Assembly (NCBI GenBank): GCA_022829145.1
Contig: CM040758.1
Location: 24,349,575 to 24,413,574 of the forward strand
DNA: 64,000 bases
Direction: 5' to 3'
Source of the DNA: Albula goreensis
Taxonomy: Eukaryota > Chordata > Actinopteri > Albuliformes > Albulidae
The notes under the pieces were generated by a model. That model was not told where the DNA came from. It was given only the letters and a program-made list of their open reading frames with translations, and made no database searches. Of this stretch, positions 18,224 through 62,692 are shown in pieces; the stretch's first letter is position 1, and every line of letters starts with the position of its first letter. The position numbers and the translations under genes are program-made.

Positions 18224-18600
18224 TTAAAAAGAATACAGCAATTGTACTTGAAATGTTTCTTGTAAAAAAAGGGTTGTGGTTATGAGTGTTTCATTTATTT
18301 TCATATGGTATCTGCCTTTTTGAAATGTAAAGTCAGGTCTGTGGTAATTTTTCTGGCCGTTGTTTTCCGAGTTTTTAGCAATTATCCTGTTAAGTATTCC
18401 TCTCTCTCTCTTGGTGAGCTTCAGCTTGTGAGCCCTGTTTCTCACTCCTAATGGAATCTTTCGCTGTTTAGCGCATCCTGTCAAGATTTCCGACACTGTT
18501 CTCCTTGACACATTCAGTAATTTAGCCGTATCAGTAACTGACTCACCTGACAATTTCACCTCTCTCAAAGTCTGTCAGATCCCCTGTGTTGCCTTAGAAA
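18224..18600 (-). pseudogene. Tc1-like transposase fragment (N-terminal helix-turn-helix)
   Basis: On the minus strand, reading LTDFERGEIV..LSGESVTDTA and KLLNVSRRTVSEILTG, then NRAHKLKLTKRERGILNRII. This is the first helix-turn-helix of a Tc1-family transposase, which binds the element's terminal repeats. The rest, including the DDE catalytic domain, is missing or scrambled after about residue 70. The element is dead. The terminal repeats are not evident. Confidence 0.8.
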
Positions 18601-39874: not shown

Positions 39875-39971
39875 ATGGCTACCCAGTGCCGTAGCTCTAA
39901 ATGCACGGCAGAGAGGAAAGGATTCCGGCGGGAACTCGATTCCTGGCGGCACAAATTGGTCCACTGCGTAG
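39875..39971 (+). CDS. lcorl: lcorl exon 1 (start codon, basic N-terminus)
   Basis: Encodes 32 residues plus one base, MATQC...KLVHCV, ending at G|GTAAGC (phase 1). The start is the first ATG after the CRE-containing promoter and is followed directly by the family-conserved [20 protein letters not shown] stretch. A Cys-x4-Cys pair, together with the CSFC of exon 3, may form a small metal site (inference). Human LCORL has an alanine-rich extension here that this copy lacks. Confidence 0.92.
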
Positions 39972-42900
39972 GTAAGCAAAAGGTCTTTTTGCTAGCATCT
40001 TGTTATGCCCTTGTTTTAATATGTGGGTCAGTGATATTGCGTGAATTCAGATTGCAACACAACTCAAGTTGCTCGCACTAGCTGGCAGGCTAGCTAGCTT
40101 GCTTGCTAAATTCAATTGCAGAGGTACCATTCCTGTCTCCATTTTCTTTGTCTTCACTCCTCGCTGTTCCGGTAAACGTCCCGCACATCGGGAATTTCTG
40201 GCAGTGTGAATTACGAAGCTGGGTATTTATCCATTATTGATGCGAGTTACTCAGTACACTTTTGAAGCCCATTTCTACACACGAAGAACTTGAAATAAAT
40301 TTGGTCTGCGCCTTTAAGAGCAACTCACTTGTTTTGACAGGGCTAGAATTTCGTTTTATTTTTATTTTTTTGGAACCCGAGTGCAGCTAGCTGCCATGGC
40401 GACCATAGGGTTTTTTTGGCCGTAGCAGGGGAGTGTCAGCAGTAATCCTAACGGTCGCCCTTGTGTTTCATTCACGTGACCGTTTTGTTTTATAAACACA
40501 AACCCCTTCAGCTCTCGAGAAGCCCGTGACAGAGCTGTGGGATCAAGTGCCTAACCAGATAACAGTTAGCGCTGATCTCTCTCTGCACGGCTCCCACAAA
40601 TACTTAATCGGTGCTGGTTAGGATGCCATTGACGTTAGCTCGCTAACTAGCTTTCTAAGAATGCCCGTTCTCGAGCCTGCAAAGCTATCCTAGATAAGCA
40701 GCGCTGTGATTCCGTACGCGTTTGCACTTGTCTTACATCCCTGCTAACTTATCTCAACAAAGAAAGCCTTTCGCCAGATAACACTGAAGCGAACAAGCAA
40801 ACCCGGTGCTGGTGTAGCGACTTGGGTTAAGCTCGGTGCCGCTGATACTGCCTGGTTAACATGGTCTGATCGAGTCTGCTACTTTTTGTTTGGCGCGAAT
40901 AGTTTGCTGGCTAGACTGTTTGATTAATTGACGTTACAGTTGACTTTTCAGCATTGTAGATAGCATGTTTAATGTTTGAACAGCCATTTCTACTTTCTGT
41001 TTTAGTAGTCAGTAAGTGAACCATACAAGCGAGAAATATTGCAACATGTCCTGCAAGTGTAACGTTAAATTGGAGAAAAAAACATACGTTAGCTTGCCAT
41101 TTTTCTTTCAACAATATGGAAGTCAACTTGCTGCAAACCTAGTTATTACTATCTTGCTAATATTCTTGCTTTTTCAAGGTTGCAAATGAGAGTACAGTTG
41201 TGGATGCTTTGGACTGTTCTGTGCATTCACACGTAGGCTAATTGATCTGCTGTAAATATGCAGTCTTAGCTTGTCACGTTTTAATTTTAGTTCTCTTTGT
41301 TAAAAGCATTCCTGTCCGGGCATTGTTTTTGTCCAGTTTTCATCTGTTACATTGGTGGAGCTTCGCATCGACAGTAGCCCTTTGCAAACAACAACGTTAG
41401 ATGTCATGACCTGTGGCCTATGGTGTTCAGTTTGCGACTACGATTTTCAGTAGTAAAACGGCCTTGAAATGATCATTTCAATAGTCACTTAAGCGATGGG
41501 ATGCTAGCAATGAGTGATATGTTATATACCTTAAAAACGTTTGGTCAGTACTTAGAAGGTCTTCATAACTAGCCGTCTTCCGTAAAATTAATTGCATGGA
41601 GTTTGCCCTCATATCAACAAAAGGTCATCAAACAAGATTTTTCAGTCACTTCAATCAGGTCATGCGTATTTGTCTGGTATGTTGATATCCATTACAAATT
41701 TGTACATGAATACAAGATGAGCTGTAGTCCGAGGGGATTATAGAATTGATTCTGAACTGCTGTTGAGAGCAGACTCGAATCTGCCATATGAATGGGAAGG
41801 AACGGCACACATTTGTTGAAGGAGAGCGCTTTCTGAAAGCGTTTAGATTTTGCTTGTACCTCGCTTTGGCATGTAAAGATTCCCGTATGTGCTCATTGCT
41901 CACTCGGTCTAATCAGCTGAGAATGGATGTGACCTTTGGTTCTTGTTTAACATTGGCAAATACATTAGAAATGCTTTGTTGTTTTGATATGGCTCTTGGA
42001 AATTGTGCTCCTATCCAGAACTTTTCAGTTTAACGTGATAAAACTGGAATCGCCTCGCACAAGGAGTGTGTGCGCGTGCCTGCGCGCGTACACATGTGCA
42101 GGTGTGTTTGTTTTTGTTTCCAACACACGCTATTCACTAAAGAAAAAAATACACACAAAATGATACCTTATACAAACGGATCTGCTTAACACAATTAACA
42201 ATGCAATTTGGGTAAAAGAACAAGTTGCCTCGCAAAAGGGACTGGCTCTCTTGTATATTCAAAACAAAGCACAAATCAGTTAAAGACAAATATTTTGTCA
42301 TAAATAAGGAATTAGAAATTAGCTATATCTGTCTTACTATCTGTTGTTGCTGATACAAAAAGGTGGCTATTAAATTGAAACAAATCACATTTTTCATTGT
42401 ATTTACAAAGATGTCCATTTCCACAAATTTGTGTAGGAGACCAGTTAAAAGCAGCAGGTTTGAAGGAGAACACTGCCTGTTTGTGTAATGTAACAAATTT
42501 GTACTGTGGTGTCATGCCCTGTTAGATGCACTCAGGACTTTTTCTAGGGCCTGTTTAAGTTGAACAGGATTGGCCAACGCATCACTGGACCTCTGCCTGT
42601 CTTTCCGAGGTTTTTTGTCATAATGTTGAGCACCTATAAAAGTATGTGGTAGTGTCTAGATAGCTAGATAGACCTGTCCCATTGCCTTAACATTTTTCAC
42701 CCATTTAGGGGCACATGCTAGGCATTATATTTGTCATGCAAAACTGCAGCCAGCTGCACACATGCATTTTCTGGAACCATTCTGACAATCATTCTCTATG
42801 CTGTAAGACTGTAAAATTCTAAAATTCTGTATCTAGTAATCTGTCAGCATCCCTTGTGGGATTGACAGCTACCTTCTGTTCTGACATGGTCATGAATCAA

Positions 42901-45900
42901 GCAAAGCTGTGCGGTGCATGTTTGCATCGGCAAGTAGCTTCTAACCTGGATGCTCCTGTGCTACCTCTAGACCTGGTATTAACATGCAACGTTTATCGAA
43001 TTGCTTTAGCTATGCTGCATCGGTATGCACCATCAAATATGGTCCATCTCCTTTGTGCATTTTTGTAAATACCTTTTCCTGCTTTTTCATGAATTGTTTT
43101 TTCTTCTCCGAAGATGACTGAATGTCCACTGATTGTGTTTTGTATAGCCTGATTGTGTCTACATAATTCAGAAATTAGAATCCAGTGTGTCCCCATCCAC
43201 CTCTAGAGATAGTTAACTGAATCTGGTTACAGTCCTTTCATAGTGTGTCCATTGCTTTCTGGGCAGGTCATAAACATTCAATCTTCCTGATTAGGGAACA
43301 AAAGTCACATGTTCATACCAGGTACGAACTCTGCGTTTGGTACTCACAGTATGGTAATATGTGAGGGTAAAAAAACACCAGTATAAACACATGAAAGAAG
43401 TTTCCATAAGGGGTCAATTGATCTGTGTAGAGGATGTTTATTCTTTGAATTTTAATCATTATAATTTTTAGTTCTGTACATTCACTAAATGTGTAATGAC
43501 TTATCATAAACATTGAACAAGGAATTTGACAAGTATCTATTGTAATCCTGAACAGGAAATCCAGGCAGGATTCAGGAACAGCATTTCTGCTGTAACAATT
43601 AATCTTAAAAAAATGCAAACATTGCCACGTCAGACAAGCCGAGTGTTTGTGTGTGGAACCACGCCTTTTGTATCCATTACATAAAAATAGTAGAGAGACA
43701 AAGTGCCTGGAGGCTTTCAAATGGCAGGTCCTTACGCATGCAGTTTGGAAATTTTTACTGCGGGTAATGGGTTTAAATCTGTCTCAGGTGGATAGGCCAA
43801 CATTTTCGTGTTGCTCTCTGGTGGTATAAACAATTAGAAGTTAAGTTTTCCAGTCTTGCTGCAGGAAATCTTTAAAGGTAAAGAAACTTCTGTTTTGAAA
43901 TTGGGTGAACTGTCTCTTTAATGAAGATATCAAGTGTGTTTTATTTGGGGGAGAAAATAATTTCCTTTGAAACCATGACTTGATGGTGAGTCTGTGCTGT
44001 TGACTACACCTGTATATTTTGTGTATTTGGCTGCTTGCAGTGTTGTACATATGTTGCATGTATTACTTGTGGCTTGATATTAGCATATGAAGCTACCACT
44101 GATGATTGTGTAGTACGAAAAAGCCTTGCCAAATTATTTGTAGAACCTGTATTAATCAAGCGCAGCCAAGAAAACCTATTCATTTGTAGCTAGCAAGGGA
44201 GTACCACTGTTTCGGCTCATCAGCATGGGTAAACTGACTGAAATTGAATATCAAACCCGTGTCAAACGCTACAAGGTTCTGTGGGGTTGTCATAGCACTT
44301 CTGAGAGAAATAATTCGAGCAGAAGTGGGAAAGACTTGGAGTGAATGCACAGTCCACAGCAGAGCCTTACAAGTGTGTTACTTTGAAATGGATGATTCGC
44401 CGACTCTCCTTGGAGAGCTTCGGTACTGCTGTTAACTGTAAGCAAGCACTGTAGCGTGACATGACATGGTCAATGTTTTTGAGAGCAAATGACAAACCCC
44501 TACTGTCCCCCTGGGTGTATTCTGGTGCAGCAGAGATTGACATCAGCACTTCCTTATTGGGCAGCGTTGTTGACCAGTGCCCAGTACTGTAGCCCGTTTG
44601 CCTGCCCTTAGGTGGTGACATGTACTGCGGTTCCCTGATTTCAGAGCCCATGTGATGGTTACTCATGGGTTACTCATGGTCATTGTAAACAGATTAATCA
44701 ACTACTTAATATTAAGCTAATATATGGACTAATTAATTTTTTTTTATGCAAATAGTGGTGGTCACAGACAATATGATGCTAAAAACAATAACTAGTAATC
44801 ATTTTTGGGATGGTATGAATTTTATTACTTGAATGTTATGATAGAACACATCTGTATTATTCATTTTATTTGTTTATGTGGTGGTATTTGTTGTTTGACA
44901 GGTTTTTATTAAAATGTCTGGTGTCATTGTAGCATTTTACTTGTATTTGACATTTTACTGTTTTTTTTTGTACTGTATCAGACTGACCTAGGTGGGTACA
45001 GACACTCATGTTCAAAGTCAATTTTTAAATGAAATTAACCACACAGCATTGCCAACCCCAGTTTATAGATCCCTGCTTAGTTTACATGAATTCTATTTTA
45101 AGAACCGGCATTATTCAATTCTAGACGGTCACCGTGAACCCATTAGTAAGCTTCTGTAATGCTATTGCGTGAATGAGTATTAACAGAATGGATTTTCAAT
45201 GTCTGAGTTTTAACGATGTCATGTTTACATTTGCCCCCTGCCTTTATCATTTTGCCTGTTTTGTAGGGTTAGTTTCTTTTTTTTTTTTCCTCCCCTCGTC
45301 CTTTTCTGGTTGTCTGGCTTCATATTGGCCATGAATAGGGGACCACAATGTGAGGCTAGTGAGTGACATGGGTAGTAATGGCTGTTGCATGAGTAAAGAG
45401 ATCAATACTCTGATATGTAGCCATAACAGTCCCTCACCTTTGTGGAGGCCACACAGTATCTTCTGTCCACATGCCTTCAGGGAAGTATTTTTGTGCAAAG
45501 TGCTTATGTGTTTCATATTCCCCCTGTATTTTGCAGGTTTTGAAAGCATATTAGAAGGGATCTATGGACCAAGGCTGCTGAGAGACCTCAGTATATTCGA
45601 CGGTAAGTGTGTGTGCGAGCGTGTGTGAGTGTGTGTGGAATGCAGAACGGCATAAAACAGGACATTAAAAGTGGACATCAAATCAGTATGATATGACAGC
45701 CAATCAGCAAGAGGGCCATGTTGCTTCCTTGCGGTAGATTAAACAATGTGTTTCTCAAAACTAATAGGTAAGTTAACTACAACTTAATGATACTAGGGAG
45801 GTTTTTCCTCCTCCAGAAGCATCTCACATGGCCTCTGAAGTTTGTAGGTATGGTACCGAATGAAGTGCGATTAAGGAAAGAAAGAAAGAAAGGAAAGAAA

Positions 45901-48900
45901 CCTAACGCTTCATGTTGGAGCTCAGAAAAGCTATTCAGTGTACCAGAATGGCTACATCACCCACCCTATTCTGTACTGTAGCTACCACTTTCAAGATTCA
46001 GAATGTTCTTTCTGTTTTTAAAATTATTGTAAAATACAGGCATGAGAAACTGGCAGAAATGTGTCCATAAAGTCACGTTTTCTCCTTTTCTTTATAATTT
46101 TTTTTAGACTGTGAACCGGATGCAGTCAGTGACTGGTCAGTGGACGCCAGCTGTTCTTTCTGCAATCTCCAATTAGAGAAACTCAGTGTAAGTTCAGTGG
46201 GAGTTCTGACGTGGTTTGTAGCACACAATGCCTGACCAGACATCACTTGTTGCCTCATGGTGCCTTGTGAAGACAGAGTTGCGTAAGCAGGTTAAAAAAG
46301 AAAAACTGGTATTCTTAAAGTATATTGTAAGTGACTTAAAAAAGAAACACAAACAATTGTAGGTTTTTTTTTTGGTTTTTTTGTTTTCCAACTTTTAAAT
46401 TTGATGCATCAATGGAAAGTTGCATCATGAGATTTTTGCAGTCAGAGGTCCATGGCTTTGTGACTGATGGAGTGTACTGTGTGAGTTGACCTTGTTTTTT
46501 CTAGCATAAGAATAGCAATTTTTCTTGGTCCTTGAAAAGTTGAGTTTTTCGAGTTAGGTGTTTCGAGTTAGCTCTTTTTTCACCCTGATATAAAACTGTC
46601 TCCAAGAATGTAGTAAAGAGCTTTACGGTCAATGTCACAGACTTGTGAAAAGGTTTTACTTCTTACCTCCCCTGGGTATTTTCATTGTGTCCTCGATACT
46701 TGACATTTCTATACCCCAACATACAAGATGCTAGCCGGTGTGTTTTTGATTTTCCATTTTGTGAGCATTCTTACTGCATGTCCTGAGTGAAATGCAATAA
46801 AATAGTTGTAACTTCCTCCTCTCCCTATTCTCTGGCAGGACCATATTCCCACTGTCAGTTCACCTCAGTCGACTCCAACAGAAGAAACCCCACCTCCTCC
46901 TCCTCCTCCTCAGGGCCAGTCAAACACTGAGAACATTGAATGCCAAGCTGACAGATTTCTTCATGCAATCTTTCGAAAGAAAGGTAAACTCCCAATATTT
47001 AAAAAAAAAAAAAAAAACTTTTTTTTTTTTTTTACATTTTTTGTTGAAGGGGTTGCTCATGCAGAGTTGTAGTCGATTTCCTGCTGTTTACTGAAAAACG
47101 TTCTCTGTTGACAGAAAGTCGCGCCCTCATATCACGATGAAGGAAATGACAGCAGTGAGCTGCGGTTAACAATACCGCAGTATTGAAATGCTTTCTCTTC
47201 TTGCATTGCGTAATTGTTCGCACATTATTTCCATTTCTGCCTCAGAAGGTGCATGCACATACTGTACCTTTCGCAGATATCTGGCTGGGATCTTCAGAGT
47301 CTGCCAAACACTCAGTTGATAAATGACTCATCAGTCTTGTTTGTGCATTTTTTATAAAATTAAATTTAAAGTTTTAGCCATGCATATATAATACATGGCT
47401 GTTTATCAAAACACTGATTAATTTTTACAGTTCATTTATTTAGGTATTAATGTGGGTTGGTTTGTTTTTCTTCTTGCCGTCAGACCTTCCTCAGAGCTGT
47501 GATCCGAACATTCCTTTAGTTGCTCAGGAATTAATGAGAAAGATGATCCACCAATTTGCCATTGAATACGCCTCAAAAAGTCAGATCGAAGGAGCAAAAA
47601 ACGGCGCGTCCGAGGACGTGGGCTCAGTGTGCAGCGGTCTCCAGAACCCCTCGGATCAGGATAGCCCTCTCGACCTCACTGTGAACAGGAGCCAACCGAA
47701 TGTCGAACAAGGTAAACCAAAAACATATCTGCAAACACATATGTTTCTGCCCAAAATATCTACAAACTGCATGCAGAAATTAAAACCGCATGGGTTGGCT
47801 GCTCTAATTCTATTTAGGTACACAGAAGGGGCTTAATTACCAAAATATCCCTTTAAATAAAATGCAGTAGAAAATTTGGGCACAGTCAGGCACTCCGCTA
47901 TACTGAAAGCCAGTGACTATTTGTCACACTGAAACCTTGATTACACGTTATGCCAGAATAGTACCATCTGAACAGGGGTGCTGTAGTCCAACATTCATAT
48001 TGCAGCACTTGGCAAAGTGGCTTCTTATATCCTTTGGCAGATTGTATGTACATTTATCTATTAAAACCTTTAGATTTATTGTATTCAAAGTATCCGTCAG
48101 CTCGACTGACAGGTCATTTATTAAACTCGGCTGTATCAACAGTGTCCTTCAAAAGCAGTGTGTTGAGCAACACATAATGAATGTAAACTGAGGAGATGAC
48201 TGGAAGCATTACCTCCATCACGCAGTGTACAGTTAAACACTGCTGGTGTTGAGGATGGTTTCTGTGCCGACAAGATTTATAGCAAGCCATTCCGTTTCCG
48301 TTATTAAGTTTCAGCAGTGTGTTCACAGTAATTTGTTAATACAATGGGATGTGTTGCTCACTGTTATTAACAATACATCTTATTGCAAACACATCAGTCA
48401 TTGTTATGAGTTTAGGAAATGCTTAAATTGCTTGGGCACTGAGAGAAGGATTGAGGGAATGTGCTTAGGCTAAACTGAATACCTGTTCAAACCAAAGTTG
48501 ATGACAGCAATCAACATTTAGATAGGTTGGAAAAAAAGTAAAGTTGGATGAAACTAAGGCTTATGGTTTTATTCTTTTTTTTTTTTTTTTTTTTTTGCTG
48601 AAATAGAGGCAAATGCCCAATAGGAGGTCAAATTTAGTCTCTTAAAGAACTTCAGTTAAGGGCTGACATGACAGTTGAAATTGTTTTCTGTGCACATAAT
48701 ATGACATGCCTCATACATGTAGAGGGAGTTTATTTTTCTTTGTGTCCATATAGGACTAAAACAATAACGCCATGACTGATATCTGTGAAGATTTGCGCTA
48801 ATCCATTAAACAGGACTAAAACAATAAAACAATAACGCCATGACTGATATCTGTGAAACTTTGCGCTAATCCATTAAATAGGACTAAAACAATAAAACAA

Positions 48901-51758
48901 TACTGATATCTGTGAAACGCGCTAATCCATTAAATGACTAAAACAATATCTGACTGAAACTTTGCGCTAATCCATTAAATAGGACTAAAACAATAAAACA
49001 ATAACGCCATGACTGATATCTGTGAAACTTTGCGCTAATCCATTAAATAGGACTAAAACAATAAAACAATAACGCCATGACTGATATCTGTGAAACTTTG
49101 CGCTAATCCATTAAATAGGACTAAAACAATAAAACAATAACTCCATGACTGATATCTGTGAAACTTTGCGCTAATCCATTAAATAGGACTAAAACAATAA
49201 AACAATAACGCCATGACCGATACCTGTGAAACTTTGCGCTAATCCATTAATCCATCCTGTAACTTAAGCCAGAAGTGAATGAATTTTAGTTGTGTAGAAG
49301 AAAACAAACTGAAAGGGATTGCAGTCATCCTTCCTGACATTCTCCTCTGTGCTCCCAGGCATTGGCAAAAAAATCAGCTGTAGCAAACATCAGTTTTCCT
49401 GCCTCGGTGCGTTCAGCTTTATGATGCCATTTGGTCGGCTTGGGGGAGGTGTGGGGTGGGGGGTTGGGGGTAGAGAAGACAATTCACAGGAAATTGGTAC
49501 CCCTTTCAGGAAATACAAATCGGTAGCCAAGGCCCCTGCTTTGGTAGGTACTGGTCACAGAGCTGCTGTTAACCATCGGCTATTGCCAGTTTTTTTTCCT
49601 TTTTTGGCTGAGAACAAACTATTAACATCAGCCCTTGGCAGCTTTTTGGGGAGAAAAACAAATTATCTGATGTTTTTTTTTTTTTCTTTATTTCCTAAAA
49701 GCAGATGGGGTTCTCGACCTCTCAAAAAAGAATTGTGCCAGTTCTGCCATGTCAACGGCATCCAATCAAAAAGCATCAGGGTGAGTACTTTTTGATATCC
49801 TTGTTGTTGTTGGCATCTTAAGTTGAAAACATTTTCTAAGGGCAGTATTAGGTACTCTTGATTGGTCAGTTTTACCTTCATATTTTTTTTTTTTTTTTTC
49901 ATTTTTCATATGCACATGGAAAAGATGGTGCATAAAAACAGTAGGAATTGCTTCTGATTTGGGAGTGCTGAAATGTCCCTTCTACTGCCTTGGTTGTGTC
50001 ATGTAGACAAATTAAAATTGTGCAGACCATCTTGGAAATCTGAATGGTACTTACGTGGTAATGTACCTGGCAAATCAATGTCTGTTACATATGCTCAGCT
50101 TCGACAGAGCACTGTAGAAAATGTGAATAATTCATGCAACATTTGCAAGGATAGTAAACATTACATTGACTGTCAGAATATGCATGTGTTCTTTATTACT
50201 TCATCCTGAGTATACAATGTTCCTGTTGCAATGCCAGTTTGTATTATTGGTATTTTGGTAGATTTTATTTTCCCGTTAGTTTAAATACCAAGGGGTTGAC
50301 TCTTTTATTACTTGTTCAGCGGTAACGTCACAGTTGTCAACAGTGCAGAACATGATCAGCAGTACTGTACAACTTAACATTTTGGAGACTTATTCTCTTA
50401 AGCCTTGAAAATGTAGGAGTCATTCCAGCACATACATTCAACACATTCTACCAAAAAAAAAGATTATAAAAAGACACACTGGAAGTGCTACTGTAGACGT
50501 TGCTACCGCATGATTGACAGGCCGTCCTTCCAGGACTAACGTTTGCAGCTGTTTTTGTTTTTTCTCTAAAAAAAAGAAAAGAAAAGAAAAAAAAAACCAT
50601 AAACGACTACAACTCAGAGACTTTTAAGCAGTGGTGTTGTGAGAAGCAGTGATGTTACCATAAAGCAAGGAATAAAGGAGTGGACCCTTCCCTTCCCATA
50701 GCTGTGTGCCAGTCTGTCATGAGTCCCGCTCACCACCGTTTCATTCCATCCATCTTAGGAGACCGCAGAAAGATGACTATGTGGAAAGAAGCTCTGAGTT
50801 TTCAGAAGGTTTACTCTCGAAAGCCTTGAAAGACATTCAGTCAGGATTGCTGGATGTTCACAAAGCAGCCATACTTTACGGCATACCTCAAAAAACCTTG
50901 CATCTCCGGCTGGAGGCCTTATCGGAAGGAAGACTGACCGTGCTGAAAAGCCTCGCTCAGGACGACGGCATGGACTTTGTTTCCAAGAGCAGGGAGACCC
51001 GCCTTGTTCTCCAGAAGGTGGCCAGCTGGGCTCGGGCTCAAGGGGAACATGCAGACCTGGGCAAGCTCAGCCTGACGGAAAGCCCTGAGCTCAAGTTCCC
51101 GGCGGCCTCCACATACCTCCACCAGCTCACCCTGCAGAGGATGGTCGCCCAGCTGAAGGAGAAGAACGAAAGCCTTTACTTTGAAAGCTCAAACAATCCC
51201 ACTGTACGTTTAAAAATCCCTCAGGTACGAGTCAGTTCTGTGCCCAAGTCCCAAGCCGACATCTCAAGTCTTGTGGATGTAATGTATCAAGTGTCTAAAG
51301 CTACAACGATGCCAGAAGGCTCCGCTCTTCAAAAACTCAAAACCATACTCCCTAAGCAGAACAAAGTGGAATGTTCTGTACCTCTACTTCACTCTGGTAT
51401 TGAGTCTTGCCTCCTGCAGGCGGATCTCTCTCCGTTGTGTCTTAACTTGAAGAACGGTTCGGTCGAAGATTCTGCCGATGACCTAGATCGGAGGGATAAG
51501 CAGCCCAGGAAGAAGCGCGGCCGCTACCGGCAGTATGACCACGACATTCTGGAAGAAGCCATCACCATGGTAATGAGCGGCAAAATGAGTGTCTCTAAAG
51601 CACAAGGAATATACGGAGTACCTCACAGCACTTTAGAGTACAAAGTTAAAGAGCGGTCTGGGACTCTCAAAACCCCGCCCAAAAAGAAACCCAGGTTCTC
51701 CGAGTCTGGGTCTTTGCGTGCGACCGAATCAGGGACAAGCAGTTCCAAAATGTTTTAG
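39875..51758 (+). CDS. lcorl: LCORL short isoform, seven-exon gene model (564 aa)
   Basis: Ligand-dependent nuclear receptor corepressor-like protein, a nuclear transcription regulator. Seven exons, all with GT-AG borders and matching phases (1,1,0,1,1,2), sum to 1695 nt, which is 564 residues plus stop. The N-terminal exons spell the LCORL-type start ([20 protein letters not shown]) and the [13 protein letters not shown] block. CtBP-type motifs are PLDLTVN (residues 191-197) and VLDLSKK (209-215). A first pipsqueak-like helix-turn-helix lies at about residues 246-286 and the canonical one ([15 protein letters not shown] onward) at about 485-535, followed by a basic PPKKK tail. The family is usually about 600 residues, so the length fits. 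I prefer LCORL to its paralogue LCOR because exon 5 has no LxxLL box and the middle region ([19 protein letters not shown]) is LCORL-like from memory. In mammals the locus is linked to body size. Assignment by recognition, not by database search. Confidence 0.93.
39972..45536 (+). other. lcorl: lcorl intron 1
   Basis: GTAAGC to TTGCAG, 5.6 kb. The first kilobase is richer in CpG and may carry promoter-proximal control elements (inference). A Z-DNA-prone alternating purine-pyrimidine tract lies near 42064-42110. I find no coding sequence; ORFs here look random. Confidence 0.85.
45537..45602 (+). CDS. lcorl: lcorl exon 2
   Basis: Acceptor is ...ttttgcag, after a pyrimidine tract; donor is G|GTAAGT at 45603. 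Encodes [22 protein letters not shown], the most recognisable conserved block of the LCOR/LCORL N-terminus. Both ends are phase 1, so skipping it (66 nt) would keep the frame. Confidence 0.93.
45603..46838 (+). other. lcorl: lcorl introns 2 and 3
   Basis: Intron 2 is 45603-46107 and intron 3 is 46188-46838, interrupted by exon 3. Intron 2 has a short GAAA-rich tract at 45877-45900 and intron 3 a T-run at about 46363-46381. Nothing else supported. Confidence 0.85.
46108..46187 (+). CDS. lcorl: lcorl exon 3 (CSFC motif)
   Basis: Acceptor tttttttag at 46107 and donor AGT|GTAAGT at 46188. Encodes [20 protein letters not shown] and the following QLEKLS. Enters in phase 1 and leaves in phase 0. 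The Cys-x2-Cys and acidic-tryptophan pattern match the LCORL family. Confidence 0.92.
46839..46983 (+). CDS. lcorl: lcorl exon 4 (proline run, FRKK)
   Basis: Acceptor ctctggcag at 46838, donor G|GTAAAC at 46984, phase 0 to phase 1. Encodes [16 protein letters not shown], a run of seven prolines, then [20 protein letters not shown] and RKK. The STPTEE and ECQA blocks are family-conserved. The proline run is low-complexity and a likely site of length variation. An A-run/T-run inverted repeat begins about 20 bp beyond the donor. Confidence 0.91.
46984..47483 (+). other. lcorl: lcorl intron 4
   Basis: 500 bp, GTAAAC to GTCAG. Begins with the A-run/T-run inverted repeat described separately. No coding sequence. 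Confidence 0.85.
47005..47037. repeat. A-run then T-run inverted repeat next to the exon 4 donor
   Basis: About 17 A, one C, then about 15 T (boundaries approximate) form a near-perfect A:T hairpin about 20 bp beyond the 5' splice site. Probably two simple tracts or a retroposition scar. It could fold in the pre-mRNA. Confidence 0.75.
47484..47711 (+). CDS. lcorl: lcorl exon 5 (first CtBP motif)
   Basis: Acceptor cttgccgtcag at 47483, donor G|GTAAAC at 47712, both phase 1. Encodes [20 protein letters not shown], then [13 protein letters not shown] and, near the end, [11 protein letters not shown]. The PLDLTV motif resembles the PxDLS signal that recruits the corepressor CtBP in LCOR. The LxxLL nuclear-receptor box found at the matching place in LCOR is absent, which supports lcorl. 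Confidence 0.92.
48753..49250 (+). repeat. 68-bp minisatellite in lcorl intron 5 (about 8 copies)
   Basis: Units begin ggactaaaacaataaaac and end ctaatccattaaata. Starts at 48753, 48813, 48881, 48982, 49050, 49118 and 49186; the four last are exactly 68 bp apart and nearly identical. The copies between 48881 and 48982 are shortened and mixed, with one truncated unit of about 40 bp. Replication slippage explains the pattern. Confidence 0.9.
49441..49475 (+). other. G-rich tract, possible G-quadruplex, intron 5
   Basis: Runs of 3-6 G separated by short spacers (tgggggaggtgtggggtggg and onward) fit the four-run G-quadruplex pattern on the sense strand, 230 bp before exon 6. Not shown to fold. 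Confidence 0.5.
49702..49780 (+). CDS. lcorl: lcorl exon 6 (second CtBP motif, NAGNAG acceptor)
   Basis: Encodes [20 protein letters not shown] then SNQKASG, carrying the second CtBP-type motif VLDLSKK. The donor is GG|GTGAGT at 49781 (phase 2). The acceptor reads AAAAGCAG|ATGG: two AGs three bases apart, so the exon may start at 49702 (adds Ala) or 49705, both in frame. The VLDLS spacing after the PLDLT motif is conserved in LCOR and LCORL. Confidence 0.9.
49781..50758 (+). other. lcorl: lcorl intron 6 (short-isoform splice)
   Basis: GTGAGT to TCTTAG, 978 bp. T-run at about 49882-49899 and an A-rich GAAAA tract at 50570-50597. No coding sequence. In the long isoform this donor would instead splice to 56514, skipping exon 7. 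Confidence 0.82.
50759..51758 (+). CDS. lcorl: lcorl exon 7, short-isoform last exon (pipsqueak HTH)
   Basis: Acceptor ccatccatcttag at 50758, entry phase 2, stop TAG at 51756-51758. Starts [21 protein letters not shown] first helix-turn-helix-like unit ([25 protein letters not shown]) lies at 50799-50920. The canonical pipsqueak domain starts with [16 protein letters not shown] at 51498 and continues [20 protein letters not shown] and [18 protein letters not shown] basic PPKKKPRF tail may act as a nuclear localisation signal. The domain is expected to bind DNA. The middle section [20 protein letters not shown] is a conserved helical region. The frame is intact throughout, unlike the alternative last exon. 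Confidence 0.94.
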
Positions 51759-56513: not shown

Positions 56514-58640
56514 CTCCCTGGGCTGGCTGGTGACATTGAAGTCCACTTGGATACACGGGAAGAAAAGTTTGAAGCTAGAAGTTCCACGTTGGAAACAGTT
56601 CTTTCATCATTGTGTCCATACCACAAGACTTTGCTGTATCAGATTCTCAAGTGTATGTGTGAATACTATGGAATTTCCACTCATCAGTTCAGAAACGCCC
56701 ATAGACACTTTCCACAAACGGACAGTTCCTTGTATTGTCATTTATCCAAAAAGCTTAACCAGGACATGTACTCTTTCGGTGACTACAAGACGTCTAATGC
56801 CTGCTACTTGCAGGCCTGTCGGGTGAATGCATACCATGTATCCCCAGTCTGTATCTGCATGAAGAATTTGCATTGTTTATCATGTCAAACCGTGGCTATT
56901 GGCTGCATTAGCAATGTGGTCGGTCCCAGCTCCTGTGGTTGCTACCCTCATCATCAGAGATGTCCGTGTTCTTGTCAGAACTACATCGATGGTGCATATA
57001 TCACTCCAGTTGGAAATGTAGCGAATTCCCCATTCACTCCTCACAAAGCCTGTGATTCGTTCAATCCCTGCACCAGGGGCTGTAGCCCGTCCCCCCCACC
57101 ACTTTCTCCCAAACCACCTGATGCCATTGGAAAGATTACTGACAAGACCATTGTGTGCTCTTTTTCGGATGGTAAGACTTGCAGTAACCAGCCACCATCC
57201 CTCCTTCCATATGAAGAGGAGAATGATGAACTTTTTAACAGAGAGGGAGTTGGTAAAGAAGATGATGAAACCACGCGCCAGAAAGTTGATGAGGAGGGCA
57301 CGAAATGTAGCATAGAACCCAGGAAGTGTCTTGAACAAAGACCAAGTGGGACTAGCATCCAAGATCTCGTGGAGCGTATCAGCGAGAATCTGAACAAGAC
57401 TGAACCACTGGAGAAAGGGCAGAACTTCAGTACCACTGCCAACGAAAGCTTGCAATGCATAGATGAAGCTTGTGTAGGGAAAATCACAACTACAGTTGTA
57501 TGTAATGAGAATGACCATGATTACACCCTGAAGGAGCTTCCTTACGACCCCAAAGCACCTGAGGACACACCTATTCAGACAAATTCTGTGACTCAAGAGA
57601 ACACAGTGAATAAGTCTCTGGACATTCCCTCATCTTGCACGCAGAGTTTACAAAGCGAAACCGATCTTGCTGATCAGAAAAGGCTGAATCAAGATGTAGG
57701 AATTGAGGTGAATACTCAGTCCTCTAGCTTGCAACTGATTTCTGATATCTCAGATGTGGAGGGAGTTCCTGAAGATGTGGACAGTGGAATCACGAAAGAC
57801 TGTTGTGACAATCAAAATGCTGAGCAGCCTCTTTGCACACCTGAAAATAAGGGAAATTCACAGACAGTAGTGGAAAAAGACACAAACACAGAAGGCCGTG
57901 CAATATCAATGAAAGATTTATCTCATGAAAGTGGTGGCTTAAGTCCTGAGAAACAAATTTGGCCTTCTCAGTCAAGCAACTGCAGTGATTCAGGCAGATC
58001 CAGAAGAAACATTGTTCCCCCACAGAGATTTTCCTCGTATGTTACAGAACCTAGAAAGATGTATTTTGCTGCCTGTTTTTCAGAAAGCATTTTCATTCGA
58101 AAAGCATCCAAAGATAAGCTCCTAAAAGATGCTGACAGTGAAAATTCATCAGACATCAAAAATGAATCCTCAATAGAGCCGGTTGCTCAGAAGGAATCCT
58201 CCAGTGATGCATGTAATATCACACAGGCCACTGATGATGATGAGCAAGTCAGTAACAAACCAAAAGAGAGGGATCAAGCTACAACAGAACCAAGTAGTCC
58301 ATCTGTTCAGGAAAAGGAAAGAAAAGATGTTGAGGGGAGTAAGGCTAAATGGACTTCTCCAAGGAAGAAAAAGTTGCCTGTAGAAGCCCCCAGAAACCAC
58401 ATGAAATCAAAGCCTTCTGGTGCTCAGAGGAAAGACTATGACTCCCAGTTGCAAAAAGATGATTCCAAGGACCAACCATTAGCAAATACCCAGGCAATTG
58501 ACAATGCACCTGTGTCCAGTGAATGCCACTCAGTTCCTCAGTACACAAGCCCTATTCGGCTGATGTACGTATCTCCCATGGTCTGTGAGAATGGGATCCG
58601 CTACACTCTGAAGTCTGCCGTTTGTGGTTCCACCGATCAG
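56514..58640 (+). CDS. lcorl: lcorl alternative long last exon, part 1 (Cys-rich, PALI2 type)
   Basis: An open frame of 709 codons follows a strong acceptor (pyrimidine-rich tract ending atgtag at 56513). It begins LPGLAGDIEVHLDTREEKFE and has a conserved-looking LCPYHKTLLYQILKCMCEYY block. A cysteine-rich stretch with C-x-C and C-x2-C pairs (about 56810-56980) follows, then a long Ser/Glu-rich disordered region. The end carries RRNIVPPQRFSSYVTEPRKM and SPIRLMYVSPM, which look like PALI/LCOR-long conserved blocks. In mammals the long LCORL form (PALI2) binds Polycomb repressive complex 2. Oddities: a stop abuts the acceptor in this frame, so entry must be phase 0, while the exon-6 donor is phase 2. 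The frame is lost near 58640, where coding continues one base earlier. Family assignment is from recognition only. Confidence 0.8.
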
Positions 58641-59881
58641 GTGAGACGTTTGATCCATGCGAGGAATCGTCATGGGGAGGAACGACAAAGGCTGCTGTCA
58701 AAGAGACTTCCCCCAGCCTGCCCTGCACCAGTAGAACAGAGGAGAGCAGCTTGCTCAAGTGGCCGGTCACCACTGATGAGGTGTCGAGAACCAACCCATT
58801 GAGTGACATGCACGGAAAGGAGAGAGATACCTGTCCTGCAGTTCCTGAAATGACGACTTCTCCGCTGAAACGAAGGCCTGGTCGTCCAAAAAAACTTGGG
58901 CCACAAATTGAAAAACGAGCAAAGAGGCCAATAGGCAGACCACCCAAACACAGGGATGAGAGCTCTAAAAGTGATGGCAGCAAGGCTAACACTAACTCAA
59001 TGAATAGTAACTCTACAGCCATTTCATGTGAAGACAAAGATGAAAAAGCCAACAAAAACCTCAAAATCACTGTAGTTTATGGGAGGTCAAGGAGAATAAA
59101 GAGACTCGTGTCTGAAGAAAATGGAAATTTAAGGAAAGACCAACAAACTGAGCACCAAGAGGATTTCGGGCAAAAATGTGATTTAAATGGGAACGTAATT
59201 GGACCAAGTTTAATTGGCTCTTCTGAAAAGCCTCCTGAAGGACAGACAGAAAATTTTAATTTTGTCGGACCGATTAAATCCGATAGAAAATGTGTGCCAC
59301 CTCAAAGCAGCAAACTCAAATGTCAGAAACAGAAGCGGTCAGTTTCAGTGAGAAAGCCAGGGAGGCCTCCAAAGGTAAAGATATCAGGTATCTCTGTGAC
59401 AGTTACCACAGTGTCCCCAAAGCAGCGAAAGATTCGTATGAACAGTGACATCACCGAATCAGGCAGAGAGGAGTCTCAACACACAAGCTCCGCTGCCTCG
59501 GATAATAAACCTCCCAAAGAGCAGATGACAATCACTTCTGATGCCAATCACAAAGAAGAAATGGAGAACGTGGAAGATGGGGAGATGAGCAAGAAGACGC
59601 CTGTAGTACCACTGAGACATTCGGCTAGAGAAAGGAAACCATCAATTCATTTGCTGCACTCAGTCGCTACATCCAGGGCCTTTAGCCACAGTAATGCATT
59701 GTTACGTAGATCTAGGAAGCTACTGTTAAACAAAGCTAGCAGTGAGCCAAGCCAAATAAAGAGCACAGAGAAACCGCTTAGTGAAGGCCTAGTAATTTCA
59801 GATAAAGCTTCAAGACATGGGCAAGACTTAAACGTCTTGTCTGGGATTTCTGCAGATTCAATTTTACGTCAAATGAGAGTT
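58641..59881 (+). CDS. lcorl: lcorl long last exon, part 2 (three AT-hooks), shifted frame
   Basis: Coding continues here in a different frame, from about SGETFDPCEESSWGG to SILRQMRV, about 412 codons, stopped by TGA at 59882-59884. It holds three AT-hook-like motifs, RRPGRPKKLG (about 58870), KRPIGRPPKHR (about 58920) and RKPGRPPKVKI (about 59352), which bind the minor groove of AT-rich DNA. Near the end is a block RHSARERKPSIHLLHSVATS with a Ser/Arg-rich ALLRRSRKLLL. No starting ATG or splice acceptor explains the entry well. I read it as the same exon with a one-base break, not a separate gene. Confidence 0.78.
58864..58899 (+). other. AT-hook-like motif 1 in the long lcorl exon
   Basis: Encodes LKRRPGRPKKLG. 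The Arg-Gly-Arg-Pro-like core PGRPKK flanked by basic residues is the AT-hook signature for minor-groove binding of AT-rich DNA. Confidence 0.65.
58916..58953 (+). other. AT-hook-like motif 2 in the long lcorl exon
   Basis: Encodes RAKRPIGRPPKHR, an IGRPPK core with basic flanks, 16 codons after the first motif. Confidence 0.62.
59350..59382 (+). other. AT-hook-like motif 3 in the long lcorl exon
   Basis: Encodes RKPGRPPKVKI. It matches the same GRP core and lies about 400 bp after the second motif. Confidence 0.65.
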
Positions 59882-61116
59882 TGAAGTGGTGGCCTACCTC
59901 AGCTTCGTCCGAATCACTTAACGAGGAGTTGAGCCGGAGGATTGAGATGATGTCCGAGACATGGATTGCAGGTGCCATAGAGTCAAGCAAGTCGTGCTCT
60001 GTGGAAAAAGAAATTGATCTTGGAGAAAGAGCGTGCTCGACGGTGACTGACTTTCCAAAGAGCTCAGTTTCTGCAGTACAAATGCTGTTTCGGAAGCACT
60101 GTAATATGGGCGATCTGTGTGCTTGGTTCATGCAGACCACAGAGACCCAGTCACTGGCAATTGTGAGGAAGGCGAGTGCACGGAATCCATATGAAATCAT
60201 TCAGTATAACCCCAACAGAGCCACTAAACGGATCGTCTGCCCAAGTCCTCAAGCGGAACGATTGAGAAAACACGTCAAGAAATTTGCAAAAATCGTCCCA
60301 AAGAGTCCTGCGATGCACCTTCAAGCGCAAGAGAGAATGTCCAGGACCAGGAGGCTGAATGTCAGGAGAAGGCTTTTTCTCAAGAGGTCGAGGACCATTC
60401 CAAGGACTGTTCATAAGAGGCATCTGTGGTCCAGAGCCAAGCCCTTAGGAAGCTACAGAAGTACTCTGCTGAGAGCTAAATTAAAGTTTATGACCAAGAG
60501 GAGAATGCCAAAGGGCAAGAAAAGGCAGTATGGAAGTCTAACATTGCTGTTGGGTAGAGAGTCCTCTAGGCCACTTCGTAAAAATGCATTGACTCCAGAG
60601 TCCTTGTTACAAGTGGACAATAAGCAGCTGTCTGTGGACACAGGGTATGGTTCTCTAAACTCCTCAGTCCCTGGGGAAAGAGAGTCTATGACCCAACAGG
60701 CCCAGAACACCAAGGCAAAAGCTCTTGGTGGGGACCAGGAAGAGAGGGTCCGTTCAAAAACATGGAGCCCTGAAACTTTGAGGGAATGTAGGGTATTTCT
60801 CAAAAAGATTAACTCCCCGGAGACGAAATCCGCAGTAGAAGAATGTAATTTTTGCACAGTTAAGCTCCGTAATGTTTCATCGGAGTATGGTTTGCCTGGG
60901 ACAACAGAAAATGGAGAAGAGGAGAAAGCAGAGGGGGTGAAACCTGGGGGAAGGAGGCGATCAACCAGAAAGATGTCTTCACCGTACCCTGAGGACCTGT
61001 GGGTTCATACCATAAAAAAGAGAGGGAAACGGAAAAGCCATGCAACAAATGGGTCCCAAACTGCAAAGAGAGCAAGACAATCTGAGTGGAAGATCGACAG
61101 GAAGGGAATTGCGTGA
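59881..61116 (+). CDS. lcorl: lcorl long last exon, part 3 (conserved C-terminal domain), shifted frame
   Basis: A third frame, 411 codons to TGA at 61114-61116. It starts LKWWPTSASSESLNEELSRR and continues with SETWIAGAIE, then MQTTETQSLAIVRKASARNP and a basic segment rich in Lys/Arg. This looks like the C-terminal domain of long LCOR/LCORL proteins (I believe Pfam DUF4553). The end has KKRGKRKSHATNGSQTAKRA, a probable nuclear localisation signal. The TTG at its first codon is not a real start: the upstream part-2 frame meets it with one base missing (AGAGTTTGAAG). Together with exons 1-6 the long protein would be about 1,765 residues, close to the roughly 1,850 of mammalian long LCORL. Confidence 0.78.
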   Translation: MKWWPTSASSESLNEELSRRIEMMSETWIAGAIESSKSCSVEKEIDLGERACSTVTDFPKSSVSAVQMLFRKHCNMGDLCAWFMQTTETQSLAIVRKASARNPYEIIQYNPNRATKRIVCPSPQAERLRKHVKKFAKIVPKSPAMHLQAQERMSRTRRLNVRRRLFLKRSRTIPRTVHKRHLWSRAKPLGSYRSTLLRAKLKFMTKRRMPKGKKRQYGSLTLLLGRESSRPLRKNALTPESLLQVDNKQLSVDTGYGSLNSSVPGERESMTQQAQNTKAKALGGDQEERVRSKTWSPETLRECRVFLKKINSPETKSAVEECNFCTVKLRNVSSEYGLPGTTENGEEEKAEGVKPGGRRRSTRKMSSPYPEDLWVHTIKKRGKRKSHATNGSQTAKRARQSEWKIDRKGIA

Positions 61117-62692
61117 TTCTGTGCCAGGTAACTATGATGCTGTTTCAGTAATGTTGTCTTATTTGTGTAGTATCTTAATTAGCTCTGAGGAATTAAAACT
61201 GCATACTTCTTTATTGCAGGAAACGTCAAATGAATCGGTAATGCCTCTCAATGAGATGTGCACTGCAAGATATGATTCAAGTTTCAGTACAACGTGCCTT
61301 CAAATTGTCAGCTAGCTGAAAAAACTGACAGTAGTATCTCAGTAAGCGTCATGTAGCATAAATCTAATGGTAACGTAAGGTTGCACTATTTTGTAACATT
61401 TTTGTTTTTCTTCATGTTATGTAAGTAGTAAGTATATATGCATTTATTGTAAACATGTTACTTTTCCGTTTGTATGCCACAAAGCAGCAACATCTGAAGT
61501 ATTCCTAAAAAAAAAAAAAAAAAAATTCCCCTACACATTTAATTTCTGAATTTTTGGGAACAACCATATTTCATGAAGGAAATGAGTATATCATTGAAAT
61601 ATATCAGGCATACCTCAGGTTCTTAAAAACAAATTTTCGACTCACGCATAGCATTACAGGGATACGCCAGAAAGCATTAGTGAGCCCAAGCTACAATATT
61701 ATGCTGGACTTTAAAATGCTCCAGGACTGTGTCTGGGTCTAAGGCTTATCCTGGAAGTCAGACCAAAATATAATCCAACGTTTTGTGTAAAACATGTTAC
61801 ATAACATGGCATAAATAGTCAAAAGGTATGCTGCGAGTTGTTGTTTCATTTTTTTTTTTGCTAAGATGAAGCATTATATCATTTGAATGGTTTAAAATCC
61901 CCGTAGCCAGCTGGTCTTAGTGGACATTTTGAGGTGATGGTAGGGTGATGATCTGTGTTTGTTTGAGTGTTTGTTGAAGAAAACATTTTTTAACCCCTTC
62001 CAAAGCATTAATGTACTCCTAAATATTGAACACAAATGTTTTCTGCACTATTCAAATCCAAGATTAACAGCTAGTCCTCACTACCACCCATGTAGAGTCC
62101 CTTCTGTTATAGGTGCAATATCTGTTGACATTTTTTAAGCCAGATGTATATATCATTTCTACCATTTTTATTATTAAAGGTTCGAGCATTTTTATGAAGC
62201 CAGTCACACTTTATTAAATGTTATTGCAGTTCTTCTATTTTTTATTTTGTAAAATATCCTATGGTTAGCCATTCCACCTATTGTCCATGTTGCAGTATAA
62301 TAAACCTACCTCTTAATCCATCATCAACAAAATCTCAACAACATTAGATTCCAAATTGAAGTGAGCAAGATTTGGATGTAGCATGTTTGTTGGATGACCA
62401 TACTGTAAAATTAGGTGGCCTGTTCACTGTCATGTTCCATGGAATATTTTGTGTATTTCTAAAGGGATCAGACAATAAATTTATCAAGATCTGTGGAGCT
62501 CAACATTGAGAATCAAAATTATTTGTTCTTATTGTCAGAAAGATCCTTTTTTCACATTTACGTGAGTTACAATGTACATATTACTGGATTTGAAAAATAT
62601 ACACAGATGTGAAAGACAACTCCTTTTGAAATGCATGTTATTTGTACAGAACTGAAGCATTGCAACTTTGTGATTTGCTTTGTCACCGTATA
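61117..62692 (+). other. lcorl: 3' untranslated sequence of the long lcorl transcript (inferred)
   Basis: AT-rich non-coding sequence after the long-exon stop. An A-run lies at about 61508-61525. Candidate signals are ATTAAA at 62173-62178, AATAAA at 62299-62304 and AATAAA at 62474-62479. A splice-like CCAG|GTAACT (61129) and TTGCAG (61220) could remove a small intron in the 3' UTR, but only the other frame crosses it. Confidence 0.5.
62299..62304 (+). terminator. AATAAA, candidate poly(A) signal of the long transcript
   Basis: Exact AATAAA about 1.2 kb after the long-exon stop. A further AATAAA lies at 62474. Which one is used cannot be told. Confidence 0.4.

What the first reader, a model, noticed from the sequence alone, without database searches (positions are those of the whole stretch)
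56514..61116. Long alternative last exon of lcorl is split by same-direction frame changes
Three strong coding frames follow one another with no splice sites between (0, then 2, then 1 modulo 3). Entry from exon 6 would need another shift of the same sign. Each change fits one missing base, and each lies in a base run (GG, GGG and TTTT read as G, GG and TTT). The pattern points to undercalled homopolymers, or else to real decay of the long (PALI2-type) isoform while the 1695-nt short isoform stays intact.
Basis: partly seen in the sequence, partly recalled or inferred. Interest (0 to 1): 0.75.

Follow-up and report, generated by a model that had tools for sequence, protein, structure and literature searches.

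The report
Frame-broken PALI2 exon of fish lcorl

Summary
The long last exon of lcorl (56514-61116) carries three long open frames in succession, and exon 6 would enter in yet another register; all three changes have the same sign. It is a PALI2 exon: frame B has three AT-hook-like motifs, frame C matches DUF4553 (2.8e-27) and keeps the Lys-Phe pair. The 1692-nt short isoform is intact.

Only weak splice pairs (summed score 1.7 or less; this gene's own introns score 4.9-12.4) join the frames, and no canonical slippery heptamer lies in a change zone. The homopolymer argument has little weight: every zone is full of short runs.

The genome behind the window gave controls. Both lcor long exons (open frames 1422 and 1420 aa) are unbroken, as NCAPG appears to be; brca2 exon 11 is broken; 42 of 150 protocadherin matches have short frames. 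Selected unique controls show 1 break in 31 kb, so three in 4.6 kb is an outlier, suiting a badly polished patch or real decay. With no stop in 1532 codons, decay would be recent. I favour bases lost in the assembly (0.62) over recent PALI2 loss (0.28). Reads or RNA would settle it.

The parts
39875..49780 (+). lcorl shared exons 1-6: 39875-39971, 45537-45602, 46108-46187, 46839-46983, 47484-47711, 49705-49780; 692 nt, last donor leaves two bases over
   Evidence: joined and translated without a stop; donors of exons 2-6 and acceptors of exons 2-6 scored
50759..51758 (+). short-isoform last exon, HTH_psq domains, intact
   Evidence: PF05225, 4.8e-26; 1692-nt CDS open
56514..61116 (+). long alternative last exon, PALI2 type, up to the frame C stop
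   Evidence: acceptor score 6.5
56514..56569 (+). zone of register change 1 (exon 6 entry register to frame A); an unseen upstream cassette exon could also explain this one
56514..58802 (+). frame A, 762 aa, no Pfam family over its cut-off
58638..58773 (+). zone of register change 2 (A to B)
58589..59884 (+). frame B, 431 aa
58871..59374 (+). three AT-hook-like motifs in frame B (58871-58894, 58925-58948, 59351-59374)
   Evidence: read from the translation; no profile match; PALI2 is described with three AT hooks in PMC8864842
59858..59878 (+). zone of register change 3 (B to C)
   Evidence: frame C homology starts at 59869
59869..60909 (+). DUF4553 / PRC2-interaction region in frame C (protein residues 22-368)
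60280..60285 (+). Lys-Phe pair that aligns with the KKF of both lcor exons (EED-binding Lys-Phe of mammalian PALI1/PALI2)
   Evidence: PMC8319299 passages
58641..58642 (+). strongest donor-like GT of the exon; no fitting acceptor nearby
61218..61219 (+). strong acceptor-like AG just after the coding end, in phase with the 58641 donor; use not shown
   Evidence: score 8.2 for exon start 61220

Best explanation
The exon is the PALI2-type alternative last exon of lcorl. In the living fish it is most likely one intact frame, and the broken register comes from single bases lost during sequencing or assembly in a locally poorly polished stretch. Exons 1-6 would be spliced either to the 50759 exon (short, HTH_psq form) or to the 56514 exon; the long form would carry AT hooks for DNA contact and a C-terminal region that binds and stimulates PRC2. 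Shown here: exon structure, registers, domains, intact short form, frame breaks elsewhere in the same assembly. Inferred: that the bases are missing only in the file, and that the protein works like mammalian PALI2.
For: All three changes have one sign and 1532 codons hold no stop. Frames B and C keep recognisable PALI2 features, with DUF4553 at 2.8e-27 and the Lys-Phe pair. The same assembly has a frame change in brca2 exon 11, a gene not expected to be lost: 1376 aa in one frame, then a 41-nt zone, then 165 aa in another frame that matches recalled human BRCA2 (E=0.006), with the next exon matching too (E=2e-4). 42 of 150 protocadherin matches have open frames under 770 aa; several of the fetched ones are clean but for one missing base. 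Passages of PMC8081667 say that short indels in CLR contigs caused frameshifts and that some sequence stays unpolished.
Against: Ten selected unique or nearly unique controls, 31.2 kb, show one break; at that rate three or more in 4.6 kb has P=0.0005 (0.034 at the 95% upper bound), so a local patch must be assumed. Both lcor long exons and the short lcorl CDS are unbroken, NCAPG shows no sign of a break, and the brca2 change has the opposite sign. The sequencing technology of the assembly is unknown to me, and the protocadherin breaks may be real pseudogenes.
Confidence: 0.62

Rival explanations
1. Real, recent decay of the PALI2 isoform: the long form lost function in this lineage while the short form stayed under selection, as truncating PALI2 alleles arose in domesticated mammals and the chicken.
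For: The breaks are concentrated in the exon of one isoform while the short form and both lcor paralog exons are intact and the background break rate is low. PALI2 truncations are reported in eight domesticated animals, and mice with a 94-bp deletion that removes the PIP domain are heavier (PMC12448305, passages); a dog frameshift in the long form goes with large size (PMC6445083, passages).
Against: No stop in 1532 codons bounds neutral divergence since loss at about 1.6% per site; given three indels, no stop has probability 0.09-0.47 for assumed indel:substitution ratios 0.05-0.2. All three changes have one sign, and the PRC2-interaction motif is conserved. brca2 shows that this file has breaks where decay is unlikely.
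Confidence: 0.28
2. Splicing explains part of the pattern: a hidden cassette exon corrects the entry register, or the 58641 donor is joined to the 61220 acceptor, giving a form without AT hooks and PRC2 region.
For: 58641 is the strongest of 243 GT sites in the exon (6.7, above the five donors of this gene that I scored), and 61220 is the strongest acceptor of those scored (8.2); both are phase 0 by my reading.
Against: No good pair joins A to B (four pairs, summed 0.7-1.7) or B to C (one pair, 1.5), against 4.9-12.4 for this gene's own introns (sums mine). B and C hold the conserved domain. Cassette exons were not searched for systematically.
Confidence: 0.07
3. Programmed -1 ribosomal frameshifting joins the frames.
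For: The sign is the one that canonical -1 frameshifting would give.
Against: 0 in-frame X XXY YYZ heptamers in the three zones, ten elsewhere in the exon; three events in series would be needed; both lcor paralogs use one frame.
Confidence: 0.01

Closest known systems
PALI2 (PRC2-associated LCORL isoform 2)
   Same: Alternative large last exon of lcorl after the shared exons; AT-hook-like motifs; DUF4553 region with the Lys-Phe pair; NCAPG next door
   Different: Not one continuous frame in this file
PALI1 long exons of lcor in the same genome (L022 on C10, L023 on C19)
   Same: DUF4553 region and KKF motif align with frame C
   Different: Both have uninterrupted open frames (1422 and 1420 aa)
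Truncating PALI2 alleles of domesticated animals and the dog LCORL insertion (PMC12448305, PMC6445083, PMC11121065; passages)
   Same: The long form is broken, the short form spared
   Different: Those reported there are single defined variants seen in populations; here there are three changes in one assembly and no population data
Indel frameshift errors of long-read assemblies (PMC8081667, passages)
   Same: Register changes in otherwise clean coding sequence; similar breaks occur in brca2 and protocadherin exons of this assembly
   Different: Denser here than in the unique control exons

Membership tests
PALI2 / LCORL long isoform | Alternative large last exon downstream of the shared lcorl exons | tested here: met
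PALI2 / LCORL long isoform | DUF4553 / PRC2-interaction region with the Lys-Phe pair | tested here: met
PALI2 / LCORL long isoform | Three AT hooks | tested here: met
   three GRP-core motifs read in frame B; motif by eye, no profile match
PALI2 / LCORL long isoform | One continuous frame from exon 6 to the C-terminus | tested here: not met
Assembly indel artefact | Similar breaks elsewhere in the assembly in genes not expected to be lost | tested here: met
   brca2 exon 11
Assembly indel artefact | Break density in line with the rest of the assembly | tested here: not met
   1 in 31.2 kb of selected controls against 3 in 4.6 kb; the protocadherin cluster on C2 is dense too (37 of 94)
Assembly indel artefact | Reads disagree with the assembly | not testable with these tools
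   no reads held
Pseudogenised isoform | Further disabling changes such as stops | tested here: not met
   no stop in 1532 codons
Pseudogenised isoform | Relaxed dN/dS against a close relative | not testable with these tools
   no related fish sequence found
Programmed -1 frameshifting | In-frame slippery heptamer at the change | tested here: not met
   0 in the three zones

The most novel reading that the evidence does not exclude
This fish lineage has recently lost the PRC2-binding PALI2 form of lcorl while keeping the short form and both PALI1 exons: a loss in a fish parallel to the growth-promoting PALI2 truncations of livestock and dogs, perhaps with a residual spliced form from donor 58641 to acceptor 61220.
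Probability: 0.25. Interest if true: 0.6.

Novelty: not a real feature. Interest (0 to 1): 0.25.

Why it matters
If the breaks are errors, a growth-related PRC2 cofactor will be annotated as truncated or missing in this genome, and brca2 and some protocadherins of this assembly may be affected too. If they are real, they would be a candidate PALI2 loss in a fish, and a test of whether this isoform limits body growth outside domesticated mammals and birds.

Tried and rejected
Homologs of the long exon in viral contigs (P0003, P0001) and genome contigs (P0003): none confirmed. PDB by sequence with P0001 and P0003: none. NCBIfam on four pieces: only matches far below cut-off. A weak Pfam match of frame A (HTH_TANC1, E=0.081 for the frame and 0.012 for its first 200 aa, below cut-off) was not followed. 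A fourth register change near 61086-61113 followed by an exon at 61220 was considered: an unspliced frame after 61114 scores as coding-like (10.1 and 3.7 in two 90-nt bins), but frame C already runs to a C-terminus like that of lcor and C-terminal pieces gave no profile match, so it is not claimed. Introns between the frames. Frameshifting. Pinning the second change: coding scores are ambiguous over 136 nt, and lcor gives only weak, low-identity alignments there. The protocadherin control does not separate error from tandem pseudogenes; on C2 the short-frame matches cluster only mildly (37 of 94, runs test P=0.037; one search used 93 of the 94 by a typing slip and gave 0.038). The PDB search with the second brca2 frame gave one chance match; that with the first frame found BRCA2 peptides weakly (E=0.03).

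Full report
WHAT IS THERE. The window lies at C18:24349575-24413574 of a 932-Mb genome in 208 contigs; a 601-bp probe from the long exon finds only itself there. About 4.8 kb further on, after a good acceptor (6.5), lies the long alternative exon 56514-61116.

REGISTERS. Exons 1-6 sum to 692 nt, so the long exon must be entered with two bases carried over. That register stops at 56824-56826. Frame A (0 mod 3, 762 aa), frame B (2 mod 3, 431 aa) and frame C (1 mod 3, 436 aa) then follow. Shuffled sequence never gave a frame above 272 aa in 300 trials. A codon-usage model trained on the interior of the three frames plus the short exon puts the changes at 56514-56569, 58638-58773 and 59858-59878; being trained partly on this exon, it is only a guide. 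All three changes are -1. The first could also be removed by an unseen cassette exon before 56514, which I did not search for.

IDENTITY. Frame C matches DUF4553 (2.8e-27) and aligns with both lcor long exons of the same genome, including the Lys-Lys-Phe motif. In mammals, methylated PALI1 K1241 and PALI2 K1558, each followed by Phe, bind EED (PMC8319299, passages). Frame B has three AT-hook-like motifs (read by eye), as described for PALI2 (PMC8864842, section 10 read). NCAPG lies tail to tail downstream: 18 tblastn matches tile residues 8-895 of a recalled human probe with no exon matched in two frames; breaks near exon ends would escape this test. The identity as the PALI2 exon is well supported; what fails is the single frame.

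MECHANISMS TESTED. Splicing: the best donor of the exon is at 58641 (6.7, first of 243 GT sites), but acceptors that fit frame B up to 58960 score -3.9 or lower, and none to 59400 scores 0 or more with it. Elsewhere four A-to-B pairs (sums 0.7-1.7) and one B-to-C pair (1.5) exist, against 4.9-12.4 for this gene's own introns (matrices recalled, intron sums mine). A join of 58641 to 61220 would be in phase, by my reading, but would skip B and C. Programmed frameshifting: no in-frame slippery heptamer in any zone, ten elsewhere in the exon. Homopolymers: 61, 38 and 14 runs of two or more bases in zones of 310, 208 and 76 nt, covering 42-46% of bases, so lying in a run is expected by chance.

INTERNAL SIGNS. 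1532 codons hold no stop; 4.2% of random substitutions would create one, so neutral divergence since a loss is bounded at about 1.6% per site. Given three indels, no stop has probability 0.09-0.47 for assumed indel:substitution ratios of 0.05-0.2. Same-sign changes are somewhat more expected from a deletion-prone error process (inference).

OWN-GENOME CONTROLS. Three DUF4553 loci were found: lcor C10 (open frame 1422 aa), lcor C19 (1420 aa) and this one (436 aa). Two nrip1 exons have open frames of 1131 and 1009 aa; the held loci show 839 and 846 aa of them before running off the end. brca2 exon 11 has an open frame of 1376 aa with four BRC repeat matches, but coding sequence continues in another frame after a 41-nt zone; the continuation matches a recalled piece of human BRCA2 (23 aa, E=0.006) and the next exon matches too (E=2e-4). 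So a gene not expected to be lost is broken in this file, with the opposite sign to lcorl. Ten controls that I chose (two lcor, two nrip1, brca2, two lone protocadherins, NCAPG, short lcorl, one 645-aa frame near the window) make 31.2 kb with one break. At that rate three or more breaks in 4.6 kb has P=0.0005, two or more 0.0099; at the 95% upper bound of the rate the figures are 0.034 and 0.16. The lengths rest largely on the tool's open frames, which can include non-coding ends, and the NCAPG length is my estimate.

PROTOCADHERIN CONTROL. Of 150 matches scored (of 171 candidates), open frames under 770 aa are found in 37 of 94 on C2, 5 of 54 on C6 and 0 of 2 elsewhere. These are matches, not exons: two on C2 (655316 and 655425) adjoin and are probably one broken exon, of which one row counted as intact. 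I fetched 12 short-frame ones (8 of 37 on C2, 4 of 5 on C6) and 3 intact ones. By their frame maps, L031 (twice), L033-L036, L042, L043 and the first change of L037 are -1; L038 is +1; L032 has a +1/-1 pair; L037 has further indels of both signs; L044 is broken many times; L045 has only an in-frame stop. L034, L035 and L036 align to intact neighbours with a single 1-base gap over about 2.35 kb of coding sequence at 90-93% identity. They may be errors in similar repeats or tandem pseudogenes; this control cannot tell. Passages of PMC8081667 report indel frameshifts and unpolished sequence in vertebrate long-read assemblies.

WEIGHING. An error process is very likely present (brca2), but its average density in the unique controls is too low, so a local patch is needed. 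Real decay explains the concentration in one exon and has precedent in domesticated animals (PMC12448305; PMC6445083; PMC11121065; passages seen), but needs three recent events with no stop and a PRC2-interaction motif left untouched. A reader who scans windows will also pick out such outliers. I put artefact at 0.62, decay at 0.28, splicing at 0.07. Literature: a search for lcorl, fish, growth and teleost found four papers, and none of the titles or abstract openings listed concerns PALI2 loss in fish; a search for at least three of LCORL, PALI2, loss, pseudogene and wild species showed none among the ten listed of 422. No wider claim of absence is made. On checking this report I corrected the splice statement (weak positive pairs do exist) and the description of the protocadherin rows; the odds did not change.

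Noticed in passing
L049:1751-1791 (about G000:C11:20094547-20094587): brca2 exon 11 changes frame (+1) within a 41-nt zone; both sides and the next exon look like brca2 coding sequence, so the assembly probably has an indel error there.
   Followed up: yes
G000:C2:626158-1118935 and C6:25004630-25322707: Protocadherin clusters: 37 of 94 matches on C2 have open frames under 770 aa, 5 of 54 on C6. Either unpolished indels in similar repeats or many tandem pseudogenes.
   Followed up: partly
window 58641 and 61220: The strongest donor-like site of the long exon and a very strong acceptor just after its end are in phase and would splice out frames B and C; use unknown.
   Followed up: partly
window 61086-61315: A coding-like open frame and possible small intron (about 61128-61219) after the frame C stop could be an extra 3' coding exon or chance.
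   Followed up: partly
L022 (C10) and L023 (C19): Two lcor long (PALI1-type) exons, both with intact open frames, while only one lcorl exon with DUF4553 was found.
   Followed up: yes
window about 48750-49250: Imperfect tandem repeat of a roughly 60-70-base unit in the intron before exon 6, seen by eye.
   Followed up: no
window 18224-18574 (-): A 116-aa open frame that looks like a Tc1/mariner transposase N-terminus (recognised by eye).
   Followed up: no
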